NCBI RefSeq assembly: GCF_003865135.1
Contig: NZ_BHZC01000001.1
Coordinates: forward strand, 5,394,001 to 5,458,000
DNA: 64,000 nt
From: Streptomyces chrestomyceticus JCM 4735
GTDB lineage: Bacteria; Actinomycetota; Actinomycetes; Streptomycetales; Streptomycetaceae
Direction of reading: 5' to 3'
Below the pieces are notes generated by a model. It did not search any database. It saw only the letters and a list, made by a program, of their open reading frames with translations, and was not told the origin of the DNA. Of the stretch, positions 8,139-64,000 are shown piece after piece. The position numbers and the translations under genes are program-made. Every line of letters begins with the position of its first letter. Position 1 is the first letter of the stretch.

Positions 8139-8768
8139 GTGGCCATGCCCGATCCCGCGACCCCCCGACCGCGCCCGGGCCGCCCCGCGCGGCTCAACCG
8201 CGAGCGGATCGTGGACGCGGCCGTCGCGGCCGGAAATCTCGACACCCTGACCATGCGCGCCCTCGCCGCCCGCCTGGACGTCAGCCACGGCGCGCTCTAC
8301 CGCTGGGTCAGCAATCGCGACCAGCTCTTCGACCTCGTCAGCGACGTGATGGTCGAACGCATCCTGCCCACCGGGGGCCCGCCGGGCGGCTCACCCGACG
8401 GCTCACCCGACGGCGCGCGCGACGCCGACTGGCGCCCCTGGCTCGCCCGAGTCGCCTGGTCCATGCACGACCAGTTCCTCGCCGTACCCGGCTACGCCAC
8501 CCGCCTGTCCCGCCCGCACCGCCACAACTCCGACGCCCTCGGCCGCCTCCGGCAGGAAGTCGTCACCGCCTTCACGAACGCCGGCGTCGCCCCCGAACTG
8601 GCCGAGCAGAGCTGGTACATCTTCATCACCACGGTCGTCGGCTGGCTCGCCGTCCAGGAAACACCGTCCGACCTACCTTTCAACCACGGCGCCCCACGCT
8701 TCGACCTGTTCCTCGACACCCTGCTGAGGGGCCTGCCGGCGCGTGAGCCGGGCGCGGAGCGGCCCTGA
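8139..8768 (+). CDS. TetR/AcrR-family transcriptional regulator
   Basis: 209 residues. The N-terminal helix-turn-helix is clear: RERIVDAAVAAGN, then MRALAARLDVSHGALYRWVSNR (about residues 23-62). The C-terminal half is the variable ligand-binding domain. It can start at GTG 8139 or ATG 8145. A TATAGT hexamer at 8132-8137 would place a transcription start close to the ATG, so the message may be leaderless. It faces the serine hydrolase gene across a near-perfect palindrome and probably represses both itself and the hydrolase. Confidence 0.88.
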   Translation: MAMPDPATPRPRPGRPARLNRERIVDAAVAAGNLDTLTMRALAARLDVSHGALYRWVSNRDQLFDLVSDVMVERILPTGGPPGGSPDGSPDGARDADWRPWLARVAWSMHDQFLAVPGYATRLSRPHRHNSDALGRLRQEVVTAFTNAGVAPELAEQSWYIFITTVVGWLAVQETPSDLPFNHGAPRFDLFLDTLLRGLPAREPGAERP

Positions 8769-8795
8769 GCGCCGGGGCGGGGCCAATCCGCATGC

Positions 8796-9815
8796 TCAAG
8801 CGGCCTCCTGTCCCCGCCTCCGCACCTCCACCGCCCGCCGGGTGTCCTCCTCGACCAGATCGAAGTTGATCTCCGTCGCCGCGTGCACGCCCATCGCGGT
8901 GGCGCCGCTGACCTTGGCCATCGGGTCCGCGACGTTACCGGCCACCCACACGCCGGGAATCCGTGTCGCACCACCGGGCTCGGCGACCACGTGTCTTCCC
9001 AGTACGGATCCGTCCCCCGCGGCCTTGCCGGCCACCTCCAGCCCGAGACTGTCGATCACCTTCCCGCATACATCGAAGCGCGGCGCGACCACCAGGGCCT
9101 CACACGGCACGACCGTCCCACCGGCCAGCTTCACCCCCGAAATCCGGTCGTCCCCGGCCCCCGACCACCCGGTGATCTCCACCTCGCTCACCTCGCCGTC
9201 CACCACGGCGATGCCGCGCGCGGCGAGCTGCTCGTACTGCTCGTCCGTGGGCTCGGGCCCCGTGTGCAGGAAGAGCCGCACCTCCGCACTCCACTGCCGC
9301 CACAACAACGCCTGCCGCACGCCCATCGGCCCGGTGGACAGCACCCCGATCGCCCGGTCGCGCACTTCGTACCCGTGGCAGTACGGGCAGTGCAGCACAT
9401 CCCGTCCCCACCGCCCGGCGAGCCCCGGCACATCGGGCAGTTCGTCGACGAGCCCACTGGTCACCAGCAGCCGCCGGGCCCTGGCTGTCGCCCCACTCCC
9501 CAGCACCACCCGGAAGCCGCCGCCCGCCACGGACTCGGCAGCGACCACCTCACCCGCCACGAACTCCCCGCCGTACCCGGCCACCTCGGCCCGCCCTGCG
9601 GCCAGCAGCTCGGCGGGCGGCACGCCGTCCCGCGTCAGATAGTTGTGCGAAGCCTCCGCCGAAGCGTTCCGGGGCTGCCCCGCATCCACCACCAGCACAG
9701 ACCGCCGCGCCCGCCCCAATGTCAACGCCCCGGCCAGCCCGGCGGCACCGCCGCCGATCACGATGATGTCGTAGTGCGGTGCGTTCTCGGCGCTCTGCTT
9801 CTCTTCCGTGGTCAT
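8796..9815 (-). CDS. Thioredoxin reductase-like FAD/NAD(P)-dependent oxidoreductase
   Basis: 339 residues. An N-terminal FAD-binding Rossmann motif (IIVIGGGAAGLAGALTLGRA, about residues 17-36) and a CPYCHGYE redox motif near residue 150 show a thioredoxin-reductase fold; the C-terminal WVAGNVADP segment is the second FAD contact. Stand-alone members of this group often act on small disulfides, such as holomycin-type oxidases, or have unknown substrates; no dithiol product cluster is visible here. The ATG at 9815 follows GGAGGAGG by eight bases. It is convergent with the TetR gene and may be the last gene of the regulatory set upstream, though an 88-base gap separates them. Confidence 0.85.
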   Translation of the reverse strand: MTTEEKQSAENAPHYDIIVIGGGAAGLAGALTLGRARRSVLVVDAGQPRNASAEASHNYLTRDGVPPAELLAAGRAEVAGYGGEFVAGEVVAAESVAGGGFRVVLGSGATARARRLLVTSGLVDELPDVPGLAGRWGRDVLHCPYCHGYEVRDRAIGVLSTGPMGVRQALLWRQWSAEVRLFLHTGPEPTDEQYEQLAARGIAVVDGEVSEVEITGWSGAGDDRISGVKLAGGTVVPCEALVVAPRFDVCGKVIDSLGLEVAGKAAGDGSVLGRHVVAEPGGATRIPGVWVAGNVADPMAKVSGATAMGVHAATEINFDLVEEDTRRAVEVRRRGQEAA

Positions 9816-55359: not shown

Positions 55360-56982
55360 TTAGGGCGCGTGGGCCGGGTTGTCGGGGGTCGGGGAGTTGG
55401 CGGGGGTGGAGCGGTGGGTGGTCCAGGTGGTGAGGGCGGTGGCGCAGGCGTGGTCGAGGTGGCGCAGGCCGGTGAGGTCGAGGGTGACCTCGCGGTCGTG
55501 GGGGAGGGCCTCCAACTGGTCGAGGATCTTGGGGAGGCGCAGGAAGGTGGCGTTGCCGAGGGCGCGTACCCGGACGGGTTCGGTGGGCGGGGCGTCCAGG
55601 CCGGAGATCTCCAGGTGGACGTGCGAGGTCTCCCAGGCGGTCTTGGCGATCGCCAGGAGGAGGCCGATCAGCACGCCCTCGAACATGTTGGTGACGACGA
55701 TGGCGATCGCCGTCGCGGCGAGCACCACCGCTTCGCCGCGGTGTTCGCGCCACAGGGGGCCGAAGTCGCGTACGGGGATGAGCTTGAAGCCCGCGTGGAC
55801 GAGTACGCCCGCCAGCGCCGCGACCGGGATGATGCCCAGGGCCGCCGGGAGGGCCGCCGCGAAGATCAGCAGCCAGGCGCCGTGCAGCACCCGGGACGCC
55901 TTGGTACGGGCGCCGGCGCTGACGTTCGCGGAGCTGCGCACGATCACCGCGGTCATGGGCAGCGCGCCCAGGATGCCGCACACGGTGTTGCCCGCGCCCT
56001 GCGCCATCAGCTCCTTGTCGTACTGCGTACGCGGCCCGTCGTGCAGCCGGTCCACGGCCGCCGCGCTGAACAGGGACTCGGCGGACGCGATGAGCGCGAA
56101 GGCGAGCACCGTGCCGATCGCGCCGATGCCCGCCAACTGGGCGAAGTCCGAGCCGCCGGGCGGCTGGATCGAGGAGAGCAGGCCATGGACCTCGACGCGG
56201 GCTATGGGCAGGTCGAGGGCGAAGACCGCGAGCGTGGCCAGGGCCACGGCCGCGAGCGGGGCCGGCAGGACGCGGGCCGCGCGCTTCCACCGGGGCCACA
56301 GCACCAGTACGGCGATGGTGCCCGCGCCGACCGCGAGCGCGGACAGGGCGGCTCCGGAGCCGGCGGTGCCGATGACCAGGCCGGGCAGGCCGCCGAGGTT
56401 GGCGAGTCCGCTGCCGGGGGCCTTGGCGTCGGTGAGGGTGTAGAGCTGTGCGGCGATCAGGACGAGCCCGATGCCCGCCAGCATGCCCTGGACGACGGCC
56501 ACGGAGATGGCCCGGAACCAGCGGCCGAGGCGCAGGGCGCCCATGGCGAACTGGAGGAGGCCCGCCACGAGGACGAGCGCGCCCAGGGTGCCGAGCCCGA
56601 ATTCCTTGACCGCCTCGAAGACGAGGACGGTCAGCCCGGCGGCCGGTCCGCTGACCTGGAGGCTGCTGCCGGGCAGGAGGCCGGTGAGCAGACCGCCGAC
56701 GATGCCGGTGATCAGACCGAGTTCGGCCGGGACGCCGGAGGCGACGGCCACACCGACGCACAGCGGCAGGGCCACCAGGAAGACGACGATGGAGGCGGTG
56801 AAGTCCGCCCGGAGGTGCGGCCAGCGGGGGGAGGGGGAGGCGGGAGAGGAGGGAGAGGAGGCGGGGGATTTCGGGTGGGTCGGGGTGGAGTGGGGCGCGC
56901 CGTCGGTGGCGGGCGCCGGGGAGGGAGCTGTCACGCCCGTGGTCACGTCCGTGGTCGTGCCCGGGGTCGATTTCGGTGTCAT
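55360..56982 (-). CDS. SulP-family anion transporter with STAS domain
   Basis: 540 residues. After a Pro/Ser/Thr-rich start come about eleven helices; FLVALPLCVGVAVASGVP and GLLTGLLPGSSLQVSGPAAG are the SulP signature. The C-terminal 110 residues (VTLDLTGLRHLDHACATAL) form a STAS domain. SulP proteins carry sulfate, bicarbonate or other anions. The start is the ATG at 56982, 17 bases after the carbonic anhydrase stop; an operon with this enzyme points to bicarbonate transport, as in BicA-like pairs, though sulfate is possible. A 15-bp terminator follows. Confidence 0.88.
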   Translation of the reverse strand: MTPKSTPGTTTDVTTGVTAPSPAPATDGAPHSTPTHPKSPASSPSSPASPSPRWPHLRADFTASIVVFLVALPLCVGVAVASGVPAELGLITGIVGGLLTGLLPGSSLQVSGPAAGLTVLVFEAVKEFGLGTLGALVLVAGLLQFAMGALRLGRWFRAISVAVVQGMLAGIGLVLIAAQLYTLTDAKAPGSGLANLGGLPGLVIGTAGSGAALSALAVGAGTIAVLVLWPRWKRAARVLPAPLAAVALATLAVFALDLPIARVEVHGLLSSIQPPGGSDFAQLAGIGAIGTVLAFALIASAESLFSAAAVDRLHDGPRTQYDKELMAQGAGNTVCGILGALPMTAVIVRSSANVSAGARTKASRVLHGAWLLIFAAALPAALGIIPVAALAGVLVHAGFKLIPVRDFGPLWREHRGEAVVLAATAIAIVVTNMFEGVLIGLLLAIAKTAWETSHVHLEISGLDAPPTEPVRVRALGNATFLRLPKILDQLEALPHDREVTLDLTGLRHLDHACATALTTWTTHRSTPANSPTPDNPAHAP

Positions 56983-56999
56983 GGTGGGCGCCTTCGCCG

Positions 57000-57602
57000 T
57001 CAGAGGGGGAGGAACGTGTCGGTGTCGGGACGGTGCGCCGTGACCAGGCCGGTGTGGACCTCGTAGTACCAGCCGTGCAGGTTCACCTCGCCCGCGTCGA
57101 CGCGCTCGCGCACGCACGGGTACTCGCGCAGCCGCGCCACCTGCTCGGTGACGTGCCGCTGGACCGCGGTCGCGACCGTCGGCGCCTCGTCCCTGGGCAG
57201 CTCGTCGGAGAGCTCCTGGGTCAGCCAGGCGCGGACGTCGGGAGCACCGGCGAGATCCTCGCGGCGCGCCATGGCGCCGATCGCCCCGCAGTGCGAGTGA
57301 CCGCAGACCACGATGTCGGCGACGCGGAGCACCCGCATCGCGTACTCGATGGTGGCGGCCTCCGCGCTGGCCGGCCGGTCCGGCCGGTGCGCGGGTACGG
57401 CGTTGCCCGCCGTACGCAGTTCGAAGAGTTCGCCCGGCAGCGCCCCGGTGATCAGGGACGGGATGATCCGTGAGTCGGAGCAGGTGATGAACAGGGCGAG
57501 CGGCGACTGGCCGTCGGCGAGCCGCTGGTAGGTCTCACGCTCCTCGTGCGCGGCCGCGATGCGGGCGTTGAAGGTGCGGGCATGTTCGATGAAGGTTTCC
57601 AC
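57000..57602 (-). CDS. Beta-class carbonic anhydrase
   Basis: 200 residues. Zinc ligands are seen in ITCSDSRI (about residue 40) and CGHSHCGA (about 100), and the GNAVP segment follows as in the family. It interconverts carbon dioxide and bicarbonate in the cytoplasm. The GTG at 57602 follows GGAG by ten bases. It is the first gene of a two-gene operon with the SulP transporter, so the two probably supply bicarbonate. Confidence 0.92.
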   Translation of the reverse strand: METFIEHARTFNARIAAAHEERETYQRLADGQSPLALFITCSDSRIIPSLITGALPGELFELRTAGNAVPAHRPDRPASAEAATIEYAMRVLRVADIVVCGHSHCGAIGAMARREDLAGAPDVRAWLTQELSDELPRDEAPTVATAVQRHVTEQVARLREYPCVRERVDAGEVNLHGWYYEVHTGLVTAHRPDTDTFLPL

Positions 57603-57698: not shown

Positions 57699-57749
57699 TC
57701 AGCAGCGGAATACGCAGTGGAGACAGTGCAAGGCGGGGCGGGTGGCCAC
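57699..57749 (-). CDS. Possible cysteine-rich leader peptide
   Basis: GTG-initiated 16-codon frame, MATRPALHCLHCVFRC, three Cys near the end, 97 bases before the carbonic anhydrase start. It resembles polycysteine leaders that control sulfur genes in actinobacteria by attenuation. It shares frame and stop with the longer membrane-protein gene, so it may be just that protein's C-terminus. Speculative. Confidence 0.25.
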   Translation of the reverse strand: MATRPALHCLHCVFRC

Positions 57750-58610
57750 GCCTGGTCTTGAAGTGGTGAGTGCGGCGGCGGTGCCGGTGTGTGCGGAGAA
57801 CAGGACGTCGGTCGGGTACGACCGGGCCGCGCACGGGTGCGACGGAAGCGGACGGCGGTGCGGGGACGGCGCGCCCGGCGCGGTCCGCGTGCAACGGCGC
57901 GCCTGGTTACGGTCCTTTTCCTTCTCCCGCCCGGGATCGCGTTCGTTGTCGCGCCGGTACTGGATGCCCGTGCTGGAACCGGCCTGGGCGGGGGACACCT
58001 GGGTGGGGGTGCCGTGCGCGCCTTTGGGGGCCGCCGGGGTGGGGGTGGGATCGGGGGCCTGTACGGGCGCGGTGCCGGCGGCCGTGAGGGTCGGGGTCTT
58101 GCCGCCCTTGGCCGCTGCCGTTCCGGAGTAGAGCAGGGTCAGCGCCAGGATGAAGATGCCGAGGACGCTGAGGAGGGGGAGGGGGGTGCGGGAGGTGAGG
58201 GAGGTACGGGGGTGAGGGATGTGGTGGGGGGAGCGGGTGGAGCTGGTGTTGTCGGGTTTCCGGGTGTGCTGGGGCCGCCGTCGGACGGGGGGCCGTACGC
58301 GGGCAGCGGTCCGCATACAGGGCGGCGTTGCCGGACGCTTGCCGGTCGGGGTGACGGCGGCGGGTTCAGCGGCGGTGGCCTCGGAGGCTGCGGCCTTGGT
58401 GGCGGCGGGCCCGGAGGCGGTGCCCGCACCAGTGCCCGTACGTGTCGCCGCGCGCGCCGCCGTACGGACCGCCGTACGCACCGGCCCCGAACCTGGCGGG
58501 CTGTGCGGGCGGTTGGCGGCCGTGTAGTGGGCAGGGTGCCCGGCGGTGTCCGGACGGGTCTGCAGTTGGGGGAAGCCTTTGCGGCCCGTGAGGCTCTTGA
58601 AGTACCTCAT
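57699..58610 (-). CDS. Unknown single-helix membrane protein, coupled to MFS exporter
   Basis: 303 residues. It starts MRYFKSLTGRKGFPQLQTRP, then a long Ala/Thr/Pro/Arg-rich region, one membrane helix (LLSVLGIFILALTLLYSG, about residues 143-160), and a Pro/Thr-rich tail with a charged RDNERDPGREKEKDRN stretch. The ATG overlaps the MFS stop as ATGA, with GGGGAG upstream. Third-base G/C is high up to about 57860, so at least this part is coding; the last 50 residues may not be. No family recognised; part of the peptide locus by position. Confidence 0.5.
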   Translation of the reverse strand: MRYFKSLTGRKGFPQLQTRPDTAGHPAHYTAANRPHSPPGSGPVRTAVRTAARAATRTGTGAGTASGPAATKAAASEATAAEPAAVTPTGKRPATPPCMRTAARVRPPVRRRPQHTRKPDNTSSTRSPHHIPHPRTSLTSRTPLPLLSVLGIFILALTLLYSGTAAAKGGKTPTLTAAGTAPVQAPDPTPTPAAPKGAHGTPTQVSPAQAGSSTGIQYRRDNERDPGREKEKDRNQARRCTRTAPGAPSPHRRPLPSHPCAARSYPTDVLFSAHTGTAAALTTSRPGVATRPALHCLHCVFRC

Positions 58611-60004
58611 GCCTGCTCCCCCGGCGCCGACGGACCCGCGACCGCGCGCGAGCCCGTACCCGTACGGTCACCACGCCCGCTCAGCACCAGCAGCGGTACG
58701 AGGCCCAGCGCCACGATCCCCCCGCCCAGCGCCAGCGTGGAGTAGCCGCCCGTGGCCACGACCAGGCCCGACGCCATGCCGCCCGTGGCGCCGGCGACGG
58801 CGATGCCCACGTCGACCAGGCCCTGCGTCGAGGCGCGGGTGGCCAGTGGTACGGTGTCGGTGACGATGGCGGTGCCGCTGACGAGGCCGAAGTTCCAGCC
58901 GAGGCCCAGGAGTACGAGGGCGGTGGCGAGCGCCGGTACGGAGTGGGCCGGCGCCAGTGCGGCGAGGACGCCCGCGGCGAGCAGGACGATGCCGGAGGCC
59001 GCCGCGACGCGCAGCCGGCCGATCCGGTCCACCAGCATTCCGGTGAGCGGCGACGGCAGGTACATCGCCGCCACGTGCAGGGCGATGACGAGCCCGGCGG
59101 TCTCGGTCGGGTGGCCGTGCGCCCGCATGTGGACGGGCGTCATCGTCATGATGGCGATCATGACCAACTGGGTGAAGGTCATGACGGCGGCGCCGGTGGC
59201 GAGCTTTCGGGTGTCGGTACGGGGCGCGGGGGCGGCGGCCGGATCAGCGGAAGTGTCCTCCGCCGCGCCAAGGGGAGGAGCAGCGCCCGCCTCCGCCTCC
59301 CTCTCCTCCGCAAGCCGCCGCGCCAGACGCAGCGGGTCCGGACGCAGGAACACCCCCAGCACCACGGCCGCCGCCGCGTACGCGACCACCGCCAGCAGGA
59401 ACGGTCCCGCCAGGCGCGGCACGCCCAGCCCGTGCGCGGCCTCGCCCGTCACCCCGACCAGGTTCGGCCCGATCACCGCACCGAGCGTGGTGGCGAACAG
59501 CACCAGGCTCACCGCACGCCCCCGCCGCGCCGGTGCGGCCAGGTCGGCGCCCGCGTACCGGGCCATCAGGGTCGTCGCCGTCCCCGCCCCGTAGACGAGC
59601 AGCGACAGGAACAGCAGCCATACGGAGCCGAGGCCCGCGGCGGCGACGACGCCGAGGCTGCCCAGGCCGGCGGTCGCGTACCCCGCGGTGAGGCCCGGCC
59701 GCCGGCCCCAGCGCTGGCAGACCCGGCCGATGCCGACGGCACCGAGCGCCGCCCCGCCCGTGAACAGGGCGGCGGGCAGGCCGGCCAGCCCCGTCGAGCC
59801 GAGCATCTCCTCCGCGAGCAGCGCCCCCACCGTGATGCCCGCGGCCAGTCCGGCGCCGCTGAGCGTTTGCGACAGCGCGAGCACGATGAGTACACGTTTC
59901 TGCTCCGGGGGCTCCCACACCTCTCCGGTCCGATCGTCGTGCGGGCCGTCCGGTGCGGCGTGCGGTGCGGCTGGTGATGCCGGTGTGCCGGGCCGAGCGC
60001 TCAT
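58607..60004 (-). CDS. MFS exporter
   Basis: 465 residues, twelve likely helices. GRVCQRWGRRPGL (about residue 95) is the family's conserved loop between helices 2 and 3. It belongs to the drug:proton antiporter-like exporters and acts in the cytoplasmic membrane. A loop of about 55 residues with Ala/Glu/Asp lies between the two halves. It is 40 bases after the small protein gene and is in the same operon as the putative peptide enzymes, so it may export their product. Confidence 0.85.
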   Translation of the reverse strand: MSARPGTPASPAAPHAAPDGPHDDRTGEVWEPPEQKRVLIVLALSQTLSGAGLAAGITVGALLAEEMLGSTGLAGLPAALFTGGAALGAVGIGRVCQRWGRRPGLTAGYATAGLGSLGVVAAAGLGSVWLLFLSLLVYGAGTATTLMARYAGADLAAPARRGRAVSLVLFATTLGAVIGPNLVGVTGEAAHGLGVPRLAGPFLLAVVAYAAAAVVLGVFLRPDPLRLARRLAEEREAEAGAAPPLGAAEDTSADPAAAPAPRTDTRKLATGAAVMTFTQLVMIAIMTMTPVHMRAHGHPTETAGLVIALHVAAMYLPSPLTGMLVDRIGRLRVAAASGIVLLAAGVLAALAPAHSVPALATALVLLGLGWNFGLVSGTAIVTDTVPLATRASTQGLVDVGIAVAGATGGMASGLVVATGGYSTLALGGGIVALGLVPLLVLSGRGDRTGTGSRAVAGPSAPGEQA

Positions 60005-60044
60005 GGGTCCGTTTCCTCGTTCTCGGGCTGCCCCGAAAGCGCGC

Positions 60045-60566
60045 TCAGGGCGCGCCGGCAGGCTGGAGCGCCGCGATGTCCCGCAGCGACATGCTGAGCT
60101 GGTCGTGCAGGAAGCGCACGATCGTCCAGTGCGGCAGGGCGCCCTCGTCGAAGGGGCCGAACTCGCGGACGTACAGCGGTATCCAGCGCAGGGCCTCCTC
60201 GATGGCCTGCTCCCGCCCCGGTTCCTGCTGGTACGCGTCGTAGCCGATGCTGCGGTGCTCGATGAAGAACCGTCCCGGCAGCCGCTGCTCGCACCACTCG
60301 CGGTACTCGCGCGTCTGGAGGATGAGGTAGTGCCAGATCTCGTCGATGTCCTGCTCGACGGGCAGGAAGAGGCCGCTGAGCTGCTCGCGGTGGCGCGAGA
60401 CGAGGTAGAGGTAGCGCAGGCACTCGGTGACCTGCCGCTCCACGTACGCGGTCCCGGCGCCGCTCAGCGCCACGAAGTGCTGGACCACTTCGGTGTGCAG
60501 GCGCTCACCGAGCAGGGCTGTGAGGTCGTCGGGCGTGACGTGCGGTTCCCGCGTCTGCGAGGTCAT
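60045..60566 (-). CDS. Unknown protein with WH...Y..WC...H motif (DUF1399/GRDP-like)
   Basis: 173 residues, helical, no signal. The core FLPVEQDIDEIWHYLILQTR followed by EYREWC and FFIEHRS resembles the glycine-rich-domain protein (DUF1399) motif, in which D..WH....T..Y...C...H is conserved; the three His/Cys residues could bind a metal. The ATG at 60566 follows GGGAG by four bases. It lies 133 bases downstream of the adenylate-forming enzyme and 40 before the exporter gene. It may be a tailoring enzyme or partner for the peptide. Family match by eye. Confidence 0.55.
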   Translation of the reverse strand: MTSQTREPHVTPDDLTALLGERLHTEVVQHFVALSGAGTAYVERQVTECLRYLYLVSRHREQLSGLFLPVEQDIDEIWHYLILQTREYREWCEQRLPGRFFIEHRSIGYDAYQQEPGREQAIEEALRWIPLYVREFGPFDEGALPHWTIVRFLHDQLSMSLRDIAALQPAGAP

Positions 60567-60699
60567 GGTGCTCCCGGTCTCTTCGGGTCGAGTCGGTGCG
60601 GTCGCAAGGGTCGGTGCGGTCGGTACGGAAGTCTTCGGGGCCGCTCCGTACGGCTCCGGCCGTACGCGTCTCAGCCGTACGGAATCAAGCGCGCGGGCG

Positions 60700-61977
60700 T
60701 CAGCCGACGCCCTGCCCCCGCTCCAGCCACGCGTACTTCCCCGACTTCCCTATCGGGATGTGCGCGCGGTGCTCGACACGGCACGGAAGCCCCGTCAGCC
60801 GTTCCACTCCCGCGCTCAGCGCCGCCGCTTCCGCCGCGTCCACGGGAGCGCCGTCGAACGTCGTGTACCGCAGCTCGGCGCCGCTCCGGTCCTCCGGCAC
60901 GTGCAGTTGGTGGACGAACACGCGGGTCGACGCCGCGCTGACGCAGTCGTCGAGATCGCCCTGCGCGACCGGGCCCTGGCCGTGTGCCGACGCGAGCAGC
61001 TCCTTCTCGCGGCCGCAGAACCGGGAGATCTTCGCCGGGTCCGGTGTGCCGTCGAGCGTGCGCGCGCAGTCCCCGGAGCGGTAACGGATCAGCGGCATGT
61101 ACGGGTTGCGGACGCTCGACACGATCATGCTGAAGAGGTGGCTGCCCGGCTCCACCGGGACCAGCTCGACGCTCATCTTGTCGAGGTACGGGTGGTACCT
61201 GCCGTGCCGGTCGCTGTAGTAGAGGTAGCCCAGCTCGGTGCTGCCGAACAGGTCGATGACCGGGCAGTCGAAGTGCTCGTGCAGGTAGCGCCGCACGTTC
61301 ACCGGCGTGTACTCGTACGCGTGCACGATGCTCGCCGGCTGCGGGAAGCGGTCCCACAGGCCCCAGTCGGTCACCTTCCGCACGAGGTGCGCCAAGTGGT
61401 AGCTGCTGCAGTCGAGGTGGTAGCGGCCGTGCGGGTGTTCCTGCTGGGCCGTGCGGATCTCGCCGAGCATCCGCTCGACGTCCGCGCGGTCCCAAAGGGC
61501 CGGGTCGAGCGTGCGGTTGACGTAGAAGGTGCGCTCGTCGAGGCGCCGGTCCGCCAGGGTGGGTACGGGCGCGGGCGCGGTACGGCCGTGCTTCTTCGCG
61601 TTGACGCGCGCCACGTGCTCGGTGGCCAGCACGGTGGTGAGGGAGACGCGCCGGCACCCTTCGTGCCAGGTGCCGGCGATGTCCGGGTGCTCGCTCCACA
61701 ACCGGTAGTACGAGTTCAGCAGGAAGTACGGCGGCCGGATGATCTGCATCCGCGCGTGGTTGGTGCCGGTGGAGAGCACGTACTCCGCGGTGCCGGCGGC
61801 GAGGGCGTCGGCCAGTACCGGCGTCATCCAGTTGTCCGGAAATCCCCGGGCGATCTCGGGCTTCTCCAGTATGGGGAAGTGGCCCCGCTCTATCGACGAG
61901 CGGTAGATCGGTATGTCCCTTATCCGGTCCACGATGTCGGCGGTCGGCTGTCCGGGCCTGCTCGGCTGGCCATCCAT
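60700..61977 (-). CDS. Adenylate-forming enzyme, PaaK/phenylacetate-CoA-ligase-like
   Basis: 425 residues. YVLSTGTNHARMQII (about residue 70) is the A3-like Ser/Thr/Gly loop; DLFGSTELGYLYYSD (about 245) is the A5 motif; IRYRSGDCAR (about 305) matches A7, and the C-terminal GKSGKYAWLE carries the A10 lysine. Such enzymes activate a carboxyl with ATP and pass it to a thiol or amine. There is no carrier protein nearby. I prefer the ATG at 61977, six bases after GAGG, to the GTG six bases upstream. It lies between the precursor peptide and the WH-motif gene, so peptide or an added acyl group may be its substrate. Confidence 0.75.
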   Translation of the reverse strand: MDGQPSRPGQPTADIVDRIRDIPIYRSSIERGHFPILEKPEIARGFPDNWMTPVLADALAAGTAEYVLSTGTNHARMQIIRPPYFLLNSYYRLWSEHPDIAGTWHEGCRRVSLTTVLATEHVARVNAKKHGRTAPAPVPTLADRRLDERTFYVNRTLDPALWDRADVERMLGEIRTAQQEHPHGRYHLDCSSYHLAHLVRKVTDWGLWDRFPQPASIVHAYEYTPVNVRRYLHEHFDCPVIDLFGSTELGYLYYSDRHGRYHPYLDKMSVELVPVEPGSHLFSMIVSSVRNPYMPLIRYRSGDCARTLDGTPDPAKISRFCGREKELLASAHGQGPVAQGDLDDCVSAASTRVFVHQLHVPEDRSGAELRYTTFDGAPVDAAEAAALSAGVERLTGLPCRVEHRAHIPIGKSGKYAWLERGQGVG

Positions 61978-62215
61978 GGTCACCCTCAGGTCTGTCTTGT
62001 CTGGCGGACGGGGAGTGATCGGTGTCGCGGCGTACGGGAACCGGTACCAAAAGCGTAGGAAGCGAGCGGAACGCGCGGTTTCCGTGGAACTCGCGGAATC
62101 CGCATAACCGGCCTGCCGCGAACGGGCTGCGAGCGGGCCGTGACCGGGACCGCGACCGGTAACGCGGCCGAATGGCGACCGGACCGCGCCCGGATCGCGG
62201 CCGGATGCTGGAAGT

Positions 62216-62263
62216 GGCGGGGAGGCGGCCGGAGGTGTGCGGGCCGCCGGCCGGCTCCCCGCC
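62216..62263 (-). terminator. Hairpin between precursor peptide and enzyme genes
   Basis: GGCGGGGAGGCGGCCGG and CCGGCCGGCTCCCCGCC pair over 17 bases with one mismatch, 20 bases after the peptide stop. A partial terminator here would make more precursor than enzyme message, as in many RiPP operons. The rest of the 305-base gap (61978-62282) holds degenerate CGGACCG/GGCCGG repeats. Confidence 0.65.
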
Positions 62264-62282
62264 CGGAAGGCTCAGCGCCCGG

Positions 62283-62444
62283 TCAGGAAATACATCCCGT
62301 TTTGGGCGCGGCCGAGGTCGCGCTGATGCAGCCGGACTTCGTCGCGCTGATGCAGCCGTCCTTGCCCGCTTCGCGCGGGGAGTTCACGGCGACCCACTCG
62401 CGCCAGACGTTGTCCTGGGCCATCTTCTTGATCAGCTTTTCCAT
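62283..62444 (-). CDS. Candidate RiPP precursor peptide with GCIS repeats
   Basis: 53 residues. The N-terminal half (MEKLIKKMAQDNVWREWVAV) looks like an amphipathic leader. The C-terminal half carries three Gly-Cys-Ile-Ser motifs: GCISATKS, GCISATSA and a terminal GCIS. The first two lie in a 24-base DNA repeat (62317 and 62341). The ATG at 62444 has GGAGG ten bases upstream. A promoter-like TTGACG-18-TACGTT lies about 80 bases upstream and a hairpin follows. There is no LanM, radical SAM or YcaO gene in view; the neighbours are an adenylate-forming enzyme, a WH-motif protein and an exporter. Confidence 0.7.
   Translation of the reverse strand: MEKLIKKMAQDNVWREWVAVNSPREAGKDGCISATKSGCISATSAAPKTGCIS
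62317..62358. repeat. 24-bp period direct repeat inside the precursor core
   Basis: GTCGCGCTGATGCAGCCG occurs at 62317-62334 and 62341-62358 with no change; on the minus strand it encodes the repeated GCISAT core. Confidence 0.85.
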
Positions 62445-62525
62445 GTCCGTCGAGCCTCCGAAGGCAGGGGATGGCGGAAAACGGCGATGATCAGCCACGC
62501 GAGTCGCGCGGGTGCCGCTCCTTAG

Positions 62526-62555
62526 AACGTAAAAGAAAGACCAAGTGATCGTCAA
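62526..62555 (-). promoter_or_regulatory. Promoter of the precursor peptide gene
   Basis: On the minus strand, TTGACG (62555-62550) and TACGTT (62531-62526) are spaced 18 bases, close to a vegetative sigma consensus. It would start transcription near 62519 and leave a leader of about 75 bases. Confidence 0.6.
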
Positions 62556-63103: not shown

Positions 63104-64000
63104 CTAACCGTCATATTCGGGATTCGGTGGCATCCGCGGCTCCGGTACCAGTGGCCGGGCCTCGACCGTTGCGGTGAACAGCTCCCGGCCGTTCTGGTGC
63201 GCGGTGACGCGTACGTGGACGAGGCCGGACGAACCGGTGCGCGCGGCCCCCGATTCCGTCCCGGATTCCGCCCCCGAATCCGCTCCCGTTCCCACCCCTG
63301 ATTCCGTCCCTGGTTCCCCCACCTCGCCCTCCTGGCCGATTATCGTGGCCTCTATCCAGCACGGCGCGTCCAGTTCGGCGTACCGGGCGAATACGGCGCT
63401 CAAGCCGACGGGTATCACGGGCAGCGGGTGGAGTACGGCATGGACGGCCTGGTGCGTGGCTTCCAGCAGCAGCATCCCGGGTGCGTGGTCGACCGGGTGG
63501 TCGAAGATGACCGGGTGGGTGGTGTCCGCACGGAGCTGCCAGCGGTTGCGGGTGTCCGTGGGGGAGAGCACCACACTCTCGTACTGGGCGCGGGCCACCC
63601 GCCGCGGCGCGACCGGCGGCGGCAGCGGCACCGCGCGGGCCATCGCCTCGCGGGCGTCGCCGTATGCTCCGCGCAGGCGGCGGTAGACCGCCGGGGCGTG
63701 GCTGGTGAAACGCGCGACCGCGGTGCCGAGGCGGACGCCGTTCCGCGTCGCCTCGACGTCCATGGTCAGAGAGCTGAGGATGCCCCGGCGGCGCTTGATG
63801 CCGGAGCAGACGATGCGTAGTTCGATCTCGGTGGGGGCAGTCTCGGTACGCAGCACGCCGGGTTCGAGCGCATAAGTGAAGTGGTCCCAGATCAACTGGT
63901 GTCCGAACGGCACCTGATAAGCGAGGTGCGAGAGCAGCGGAATGGTCTGGCGGATCGTCTCGACGAGCAGAAGGGGGTCGTGCAGCCGGTTCCTGGAGGA
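63104..64000 (-). CDS. AfsA-family hotdog protein (5' partial)
   Basis: The gene runs off the right edge; 298 residues are visible. DPLLLVETIRQTI and PFGHQLIWDHF, then HPVIFDHPVDHAPGMLLLEA (both hotdog halves), match AfsA/ScbA proteins, which join a beta-keto acid to a glycerol unit when making gamma-butyrolactone signals. Near the C-terminus is a low-complexity Gly/Ser/Glu/Thr insert. Homologues without signal synthesis exist. It is upstream of, and on the same strand as, the putative peptide locus. No receptor gene is in view. Confidence 0.85.
   Translation of the reverse strand, partial: SSRNRLHDPLLLVETIRQTIPLLSHLAYQVPFGHQLIWDHFTYALEPGVLRTETAPTEIELRIVCSGIKRRRGILSSLTMDVEATRNGVRLGTAVARFTSHAPAVYRRLRGAYGDAREAMARAVPLPPPVAPRRVARAQYESVVLSPTDTRNRWQLRADTTHPVIFDHPVDHAPGMLLLEATHQAVHAVLHPLPVIPVGLSAVFARYAELDAPCWIEATIIGQEGEVGEPGTESGVGTGADSGAESGTESGAARTGSSGLVHVRVTAHQNGRELFTATVEARPLVPEPRMPPNPEYDG

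What the first reader, a model, noticed from the sequence alone, without database searches (positions are those of the whole stretch)
57699..62555. Candidate new RiPP family: repeated GCIS precursor with an adenylate-forming enzyme
The 53-residue peptide has a helical leader-like half and three Gly-Cys-Ile-Ser units, two encoded by identical 18-base DNA repeats, ending at the C-terminal Ser. Its own promoter and a following hairpin match the layout of RiPP operons. Behind it on the same strand are a PaaK-like adenylating enzyme, a small WH/C/H-motif protein, an MFS exporter and a coupled membrane protein. None of the standard RiPP enzymes (LanBCM, YcaO, radical SAM, ATP-grasp) is present, so the chemistry would be unusual, perhaps at Cys or at the C-terminal carboxyl.
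Basis: partly seen in the sequence, partly recalled or inferred. Interest (0 to 1): 0.85.

Follow-up and report, generated by a model that had tools for sequence, protein, structure and literature searches.

The report
New repeat-peptide natural-product operon family
A small bacterial peptide with repeated Gly-Cys-Ile-Ser units sits beside the same two enzyme-like genes in soil bacteria of three phyla, which points to an undescribed kind of peptide-based natural product.

Summary
The 53-residue peptide (62283-62444, minus) is a conserved gene. Among 295 genomes of its genus (Streptomyces, by inference) its homologue occurs in 37: all 36 with the neighbouring PaaK-like enzyme, plus one whose contig ends just after the peptide. 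In a collection of 84,980 species, the 80 best of 117 PaaK loci all have a GC[IV]S-repeat peptide upstream, and 79 of 80 have the small WH/C/H protein downstream. They include Kutzneria, Sciscionella, Paraburkholderia and Sorangium. Units number 2 to 7; two Sorangium strains have tandem [KR]KAGCIS. In 383 units of 121 peptides, Lys sits three residues before Cys in 375. A promoter (30 of 36), GGAGG (36 of 36) and a hairpin (61 of 80) frame the gene. PaaK and the small protein are fused in two genomes. The constant core is peptide + PaaK + small protein. Best reading: a new RiPP-type pathway in which a carrier-free acyl-adenylating ligase acts on the GC[IV]S units. The chemistry is inferred, not shown. 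C-terminal-carboxyl chemistry is disfavoured. No listed paper of ten searches describes it.

The parts
62526..62555 (-). Conserved promoter: -35 TTGACG, 18-nt spacer containing CTTGG, -10 TACGTT
   Evidence: Aligned upstream regions; element in 30 of 36 loci vs 23 of 1750 control windows; only zero-mismatch site in the own genome
62455..62459 (-). Shine-Dalgarno GGAGG of the peptide gene
   Evidence: GGAGG in 36 of 36 aligned upstream regions
62283..62444 (-). GCIS-repeat peptide, 53 aa, putative precursor
62379..62444 (-). Leader half, residues 1-22 (M1, L4, W14, W17, N21, S22 invariant in 22 chosen peptides of three phyla)
   Evidence: Alignment A4
62346..62357 (-). Unit 1 GCIS (residues 30-33)
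   Evidence: G, C, S columns invariant
62322..62333 (-). Unit 2 GCIS (residues 38-41)
   Evidence: G, C, S columns invariant
62286..62297 (-). Unit 3 GCIS (residues 50-53), at the C-terminus
   Evidence: third unit lost or degenerate in some homologues
62317..62358 (-). Two identical 18-bp direct repeats covering units 1 and 2
62216..62263 (-). GC-rich hairpin between the peptide gene and the enzyme genes
60700..61983 (-). PaaK-like adenylate-forming enzyme; alignment suggests the start is ATG at 61977 (MDGQP)
60045..60566 (-). Small WH/C/H-motif helical protein, 173 aa (GRDP-like; most listed homologues carry precomputed PF27765)
58607..60004 (-). MFS exporter (MFS_1)
   Evidence: E 2e-31; homologue in 24 of 35 loci and 55 of 80
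57699..58610 (-). Membrane protein (membrane segment judged by eye) with conserved C-terminal LHCVFRC (HCVFRC codons 57702-57719); accessory, start uncertain
57000..57602 (-). Beta-carbonic anhydrase, accessory neighbour in many Streptomyces loci
   Evidence: Pro_CA E 8e-41; within 6 kb of PaaK in at least 25 of 37 genomes
55360..57117 (-). SulP-type transporter ORF beside the carbonic anhydrase (label recalled, no family scan run on it; start uncertain)
   Evidence: Homologue next to the carbonic anhydrase in most of those loci

Best explanation
The operon encodes a new RiPP-type, peptide-templated pathway. SHOWN: a leader of about 22 conserved residues followed by 2 to 7 units of the form K-x-G-C-[IV]-S, encoded directly ahead of a PaaK-fold enzyme and a small helical WH/C/H protein. 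INFERRED: the leader docks the peptide on the PaaK/WH-C-H pair. The PaaK enzyme makes an acyl-AMP from a carboxylic acid available in many bacteria and, like NatL2, passes the acyl group to a nucleophile without CoA. The nucleophile is most likely the Cys thiol of each GC[IV]S unit (Lys or Ser less likely). The WH/C/H protein, possibly metal-binding, completes the modification. Units are then cut at the Lys-bearing linkers and exported by whichever MFS pump follows.
For: Co-occurrence: peptide in 37 of 295 genus genomes, namely all 36 with PaaK plus G081, whose contig ends 30 bp after the peptide. In the wider collection 80 of 80 PaaK loci have the peptide and 79 of 80 the WH/C/H gene; the 80th contig ends there. 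Three phyla. Repeat anatomy: 2-7 units, tandem 7-residue units in Sorangium, every Cys of the 36 genus-set peptides inside a unit. Single units decay (GYIS, GRIS, GRAS, ECIS), as independent substrates would. PaaK-WH/C/H fusion in two genomes (G093, G247). Residues at ANL-type motifs (STGT, STELG, YR.GD, GR, GKY; roles recalled) invariant or nearly so in 28 sequences; fold matches PaaK1, ClxA and NatL2. NatL2 forms an ester directly from an acyl-AMP without CoA (PMC7204872, passages read). A homologue of the WH/C/H protein follows a short Cys peptide in an operon with a TIGR03975 RiPP radical-SAM enzyme (613.7 bits, cut-off 281.85, scanned in L132; the L131 copy judged by eye) in two other genomes of the class. 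MFS-like pumps of other types follow in Paraburkholderia, Sciscionella and one Sorangium (by eye).
Against: No modification, product or substrate is shown. No protease and no acid-making gene was recognised among the conserved neighbours (by eye; output was cut). The unit-coding DNA is not homogenised within genes in general (0.81 identity within, 0.88 between genes), so tandem amplification is evident mainly in Sorangium. The 36- and 80-locus sets overlap and are mostly one genus. G081 has the peptide but no PaaK of this family in its draft assembly.
Confidence: 0.62

Rival explanations
1. The peptide is a multi-armed carrier or scaffold, not the product: each GC[IV]S thiol is loaded by the PaaK enzyme as an acyl-thioester, the WH/C/H protein acts on the tethered acyl group, and a small molecule is released and exported while the peptide is reused.
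For: No protease recognised among conserved neighbours (by eye); Ala/Pro/Lys linkers look like flexible spacers; varying repeat number and single-unit loss are tolerated; PaaK-family enzymes classically make thioesters (PMC7204872); exporter types vary (by eye).
Against: The promoter-peptide-hairpin layout suggests high peptide output, more like a consumed precursor (inference); no thioesterase-like gene was recognised among the conserved neighbours.
Confidence: 0.2
2. The peptide is a metal- or redox-binding small protein (metallothionein- or chaperone-like) served by the enzymes, perhaps tied to the neighbouring carbonic anhydrase.
For: Only Cys-bearing units are repeated; a carbonic anhydrase lies within 6 kb in at least 25 of 37 genomes.
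Against: Neighbouring Cys are 7-12 residues apart, with no CxxC pair, in the 36-peptide set; 36 of 37 genomes with the peptide also hold the adenylating enzyme; no carbonic anhydrase homologue in the Paraburkholderia, Kutzneria and Sciscionella loci as fetched.
Confidence: 0.08
3. The ORF is a regulatory leader peptide: ribosome stalling at Cys/Ile/Ser codons controls a hairpin terminator ahead of the enzyme genes.
For: Short ORF with repeated Cys codons followed directly by a strong hairpin in most loci.
Against: The N-terminal half is conserved at the amino-acid level across three phyla; third-position divergence exceeds first and second (0.301 vs 0.205 and 0.132; a modest excess); 19 of 80 loci, both Paraburkholderia among them, do not reach z -2; up to seven spaced units are more than attenuation would seem to need.
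Confidence: 0.04
4. The C-terminal Ser carboxylate of the peptide itself is adenylated and amidated, esterified or macrocyclised (MccB-like logic, recalled).
For: 76 of 80 peptides end exactly at GC[IV]S.
Against: Tails R (3 of 80), a Cys-less last unit (1 of 80) and KG (G527) occur beside the enzyme gene.
Confidence: 0.06

Closest known systems
RiPPs in general (leader-core precursor plus maturation enzymes plus exporter)
   Same: Short precursor with conserved N-terminal half and repeated C-terminal units, promoter and hairpin ahead of enzyme genes, exporter downstream
   Different: No LanB/C/M, YcaO, radical SAM, ATP-grasp or RRE recognised among the conserved genes; the putative maturase is an ANL-type ligase
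Multi-core precursors such as those of cyanobactins or dikaritins (recalled)
   Same: Tandem variable-number core units after one leader
   Different: Cores are GC[IV]S; enzymes unrelated; no dedicated protease recognised
NatL2 / ClxA / BagE-FevW carrier-free PaaK-type ligases
   Same: PaaK fold and, for NatL2, acyl-adenylate passed to a nucleophile other than CoA (PMC7204872 passages); ClxA by fold; BagE-FevW only a weak NCBIfam hit
   Different: 12-19% identity in the fold alignments; partner gene is a peptide rather than small-molecule pathway genes; TGT(N/H)HARM loop that differs, from memory, from the usual PaaK loop
TIGR03975 radical-SAM operon of G470/G616 (L132/L131)
   Same: Short Cys-containing peptide directly followed by a homologue of the WH/C/H protein
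   Different: Radical SAM, FAD monooxygenase, PLP enzyme and MATE pump instead of PaaK and MFS; unrelated peptide ending NCWADIK or NCWVDIE
PEARL scaffold-peptide pathways (recalled)
   Same: Idea of a ribosomal peptide used as scaffold
   Different: No LanB-like tRNA-dependent ligase recognised among the conserved genes

Membership tests
RiPP (general) | Ribosomally encoded precursor with conserved leader and distinct core | tested here: met
RiPP (general) | Precursor gene co-occurs with its enzyme genes across genomes | tested here: met
   Peptide-first 36 of 37 genomes (G081 lacks PaaK in its draft); PaaK-first 80 of 80 loci
RiPP (general) | Post-translational modification of the core shown | not testable with these tools
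   Needs mass spectrometry
RiPP (general) | A canonical RiPP maturase class among the conserved genes | tested here: not met
   Conserved genes are peptide, PaaK-like and WH/C/H protein, with MFS in part; other neighbours judged by eye, not all scanned with HMMs
RiPP (general) | RRE domain | tested here: inconclusive
   No Pfam or NCBIfam hit to one in the WH/C/H protein; its model has no PDB match
PaaK family (ANL superfamily) | PaaK fold | tested here: met
   Foldseek E 2e-16 to 2y27, TM 0.64
PaaK family (ANL superfamily) | Adenylation motifs including the C-terminal Lys | tested here: met
   S71-T74, S248-G252, R300, Y301, G304, D305, G324, R325, G415, K416, Y417 invariant, R302 and S303 nearly so, in 28 sequences; motif roles recalled
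PaaK family (ANL superfamily) | Curated HMM cut-off for a CoA ligase or AMP-binding enzyme | tested here: not met
   Below NCBIfam and Pfam cut-offs; CoA ligase activity itself is not testable here
GRDP-like (PF07173, DUF1399) | Pfam gathering score | tested here: not met
   3 of 26 members hit, best E 0.12; precomputed PF27765 on most listed homologues, a model not in the local copy
Peptide attenuator (rival) | Hairpin always present after the ORF | tested here: not met
   z <= -2 in 61 of 80; z 1.0 and 0.2 in the two Paraburkholderia loci

The most novel reading that the evidence does not exclude
A ribosomally made, multi-armed thiol carrier: each GC[IV]S Cys is charged by an acyl-adenylating enzyme as a thioester and processed by the WH/C/H protein, giving a minimal ribosomal counterpart of a carrier-protein assembly line with 2 to 7 near-identical arms, spread across three phyla.
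Probability: 0.2. Interest if true: 0.93.

Novelty: new variant of a known kind. Interest (0 to 1): 0.83.

Why it matters
If true, this adds a RiPP-type class defined by an enzyme family (PaaK-like ligases) that no listed paper of the searches ties to ribosomal peptides. It has an easily recognised motif (K-x-G-C-[IV]-S repeats) and a three-gene core small enough to reconstitute in vitro. It occurs in named producers' species such as S. rimosus, S. griseus and S. noursei and in Sorangium cellulosum, so a widespread product may have been overlooked. It also ties the uncharacterised WH/C/H (GRDP-like) proteins to peptide modification, since a homologue sits in a second, radical-SAM peptide operon.

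Tried and rejected

Limits: genus genomes (G handles) are unnamed; that they are Streptomyces is inferred from the named loci. The 36 genus loci and the 80 collection loci overlap in part and are mostly Streptomyces, so counts are not independent. The other 37 of the 117 relatives were not seen. In one search only 120 of 368, and only 120 of 224, homologues were listed; rests on the listed ones. Four further genomes with strong WH/C/H hits (G530, G634, G547, G618) were not checked for PaaK. The list was cut and I copied its rows by hand into, so 25 of 37 is a lower bound; the expectation assumes five carbonic anhydrases per genome. The outputs were cut in the middle. The tree is midpoint-rooted and G527 is a long branch. 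Gene identities were read by eye unless an HMM call is cited.
Full report
WHAT WAS CHECKED. The peptide ORF is at 62283-62444 on the minus strand: MEKLIKKMAQDNVWREWVAVNSPREAGKDGCISATKSGCISATSAAPKTGCIS. The three GCIS units and the identical 18-base repeats are as described (62341-62358 and 62317-62334; 0 of 2000 shuffles). Following it on the same strand are the PaaK-like gene (60700-61983), the small WH/C/H gene (60045-60566), an MFS exporter (58607-60004, MFS_1 E 2e-31), a membrane protein (57699-58610) and a beta-carbonic anhydrase (57000-57602). The window lies in a 9.38-Mb single-contig genome whose PaaK is, among the 82 rows of the tree, nearest to that of Streptomyces monomycini; I take the genus to be Streptomyces.

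IS IT CONSERVED. Among 295 genomes of the genus the PaaK-like protein has 36 strong matches (E <= 5e-186; the next best is 1e-10). The peptide, searched independently, has 37 (E <= 5e-9; the next best is 0.004). These are the same 36 plus G081, whose peptide sits 30 bp from a contig end and whose draft has no PaaK of this type. The WH/C/H gene follows PaaK in 34 of 35 fetched loci (the 35th contig ends) and an MFS homologue in 24 of 35. In a second, named collection 120 stretches matched and 117 encoded a relative. In the 80 kept, 80 of 80 have a GC[IV]S peptide directly upstream, 79 of 80 the WH/C/H gene (the 80th contig ends) and 55 of 80 the same MFS. The two sets overlap. Outside Streptomyces these are Kitasatospora, Kutzneria, Sciscionella, two Paraburkholderia and three Sorangium cellulosum strains; G527, of another family of the class, came. 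In the midpoint-rooted PaaK tree these loci, except Kitasatospora, group apart from Streptomyces (support 97/97); the Paraburkholderia pair and the Sorangium trio are each tight.

ANATOMY OF THE PEPTIDE. Leader columns M1, L4, W14, W17, N21 and S22 are invariant in 22 peptides chosen from three phyla. The core is a variable number of units: in 80 loci 3 (64), 2 (7), 4 (6), 5, 6 and 7 (1 each). Sorangium GT47 carries seven units built on a 21-base tandem repeat, with linker RK, and So ce26 six with linker KK; other Sorangium peptides vary more. In 121 distinct peptides, 383 units matching GC[IV]S have Lys three residues before Cys in 375 and Ile after Cys in 366, with mostly Ala/Pro/Thr/Ser/Gly linkers. 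Single units decay without loss of the others: GYIS, GRIS, GRAS, ECIS, GCIC, GCVC, GCIF. In the 36-peptide set every Cys lies in a unit. The last unit is at the C-terminus in 76 of 80; three add Arg, one is degenerate, and G527 ends GCISKG. So the chemistry is more likely a property of the unit than of the C-terminus. Third codon positions diverge more (0.301) than first (0.205) and second (0.132), as for a protein under selection; the excess is modest. Unit-coding DNA is more alike between genes at the same position (0.88) than within genes (0.81), so the units are not generally homogenised.

EXPRESSION SIGNALS. A TTGAC-N14..17-TTTAC-type element lies upstream in 30 of 36 loci, 65-112 nt before the start codon, against 23 of 1750 control windows. 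GGAGG precedes all 36 genes. A GC-rich hairpin follows the stop codon, with different sequences in different loci: z <= -2 in 29 of 36 genus loci and 61 of 80 collection loci, but not in Paraburkholderia. This layout would let the peptide be made in excess of the enzymes (inference).

THE ENZYMES. The PaaK-like protein falls below Pfam and NCBIfam cut-offs, but its model (pLDDT 84.8) matches PaaK1, BT_0428, ClxA, NatL2 and AjiA1 (Foldseek E 2e-16 to about 1e-13). Residues corresponding to ANL motifs (roles recalled) are invariant or nearly so in 28 sequences. The stretch that should be the phosphate-binding loop is a TGT(N/H)HARM form, unusual from memory, and is modelled with low confidence. 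NatL2 makes an acyl-AMP and passes it to a hydroxyl group, forming an ester without CoA (PMC7204872, passages read), so carrier-free acyl transfer has precedent in this family. The WH/C/H protein (model pLDDT 80, essentially all helical) has no PDB match. D75, W78, H79, C92, H104, R105 and S106 are invariant in 26 sequences, which would suit a metal site (inference). PaaK and the WH/C/H protein are one ORF in two genomes (G093, G247), which ties them to one process. In G470 and G616 a homologue (117-125 bits) follows a different short Cys peptide and precedes a PLP enzyme, an FAD monooxygenase, a TIGR03975 RiPP radical-SAM C-methyltransferase (613.7 bits, cut-off 281.85) and a MATE pump (HMM scans of the G470 copy only). 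So this protein family appears in two peptide operons with unrelated chemistry.

MOST LIKELY MECHANISM. Leader-directed acyl transfer from an acyl-AMP to the GC[IV]S units by the PaaK-like enzyme, completed by the WH/C/H protein, release of units at the Lys-bearing linkers, and export by an MFS pump. Shown: gene set, repeat anatomy, predicted fold, fusion, expression signals. Inferred: every chemical step. Main rival: the peptide is a reusable multi-armed thiol carrier. The lack of a recognised protease fits that rival; the expression layout and Lys-bearing linkers fit the product reading. I put 0.62 on the RiPP-type reading, 0.2 on the carrier, and the rest on metal-binding, C-terminal and regulatory readings.

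ACCESSORY MODULE. In Streptomyces a carbonic anhydrase lies within 6 kb of PaaK in at least 25 of 37 genomes (about 0.26 expected if five such genes per genome were placed at random), in at least three relative arrangements. The membrane protein ending LHCVFRC lies just before it. The HCVFRC-stop pattern occurs in 10 of 295 genus genomes, all ten at this locus, and in 17 of the 80 collection loci. This is not part of the constant core: no carbonic anhydrase homologue was found in the Paraburkholderia, Kutzneria or Sciscionella loci as fetched, and Sorangium L194 has only a distant one (31% identity) at the far end. It may still be functional.

NOVELTY. No listed paper of ten searches of an open-access library describes this peptide motif or PaaK-type enzymes in RiPP pathways (calls and caps under Tried and rejected). 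Listed homologues are mainly named hypothetical proteins. I file it as a new variant of a known kind: the layout is that of a RiPP, the maturation machinery is not that of any class known to me.

Noticed in passing
57699-58610 (-), HCVFRC codons 57702-57719: Low-complexity membrane protein with a conserved C-terminal LHCVFRC; the HCVFRC-stop pattern occurs in 10 of 295 genus genomes, all at GCIS/PaaK loci, just before a carbonic anhydrase.
   Followed up: partly
57000-57602 and 55360-57117 (-): Carbonic anhydrase (with a SulP-like transporter) lies within 6 kb of PaaK in at least 25 of 37 genomes against about 0.26 expected, in at least three arrangements.
   Followed up: partly
L132:8394-15161 and L131:2359-9131: A homologue of the WH/C/H protein sits in another RiPP-type operon: short peptide ending NCWADIK/NCWVDIE, PLP enzyme, FAD monooxygenase (resembles RdmE/MbnF, below cut-off), TIGR03975 radical SAM, MATE pump (HMMs on L132 only).
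   Followed up: partly
L056:8798-10504 and L059:8976-10721: PaaK-like and WH/C/H proteins fused in a single ORF of 569 and 582 aa.
   Followed up: yes
63104-64000 (-): ScbA/AfsA-type gamma-butyrolactone synthase upstream of the operon (277.6 bits, cut-off 200); among the 35 fetched genus loci a homologue appears only in L032 and L033.
   Followed up: no
L142, about 8601-9083 (+) (own genome, G000:C1 near 4911690): A second, standalone WH/C/HH-type protein in the same genome; several similar genes elsewhere lie beside helix-turn-helix genes (by eye).
   Followed up: no
L144 (G081:C448): Peptide gene at a contig end; no PaaK of this family found in that draft genome.
   Followed up: partly
Promoter spacer, 62526-62555 (-): A CTTGG block inside the promoter spacer is conserved in many loci and may be a regulator site.
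   Followed up: no
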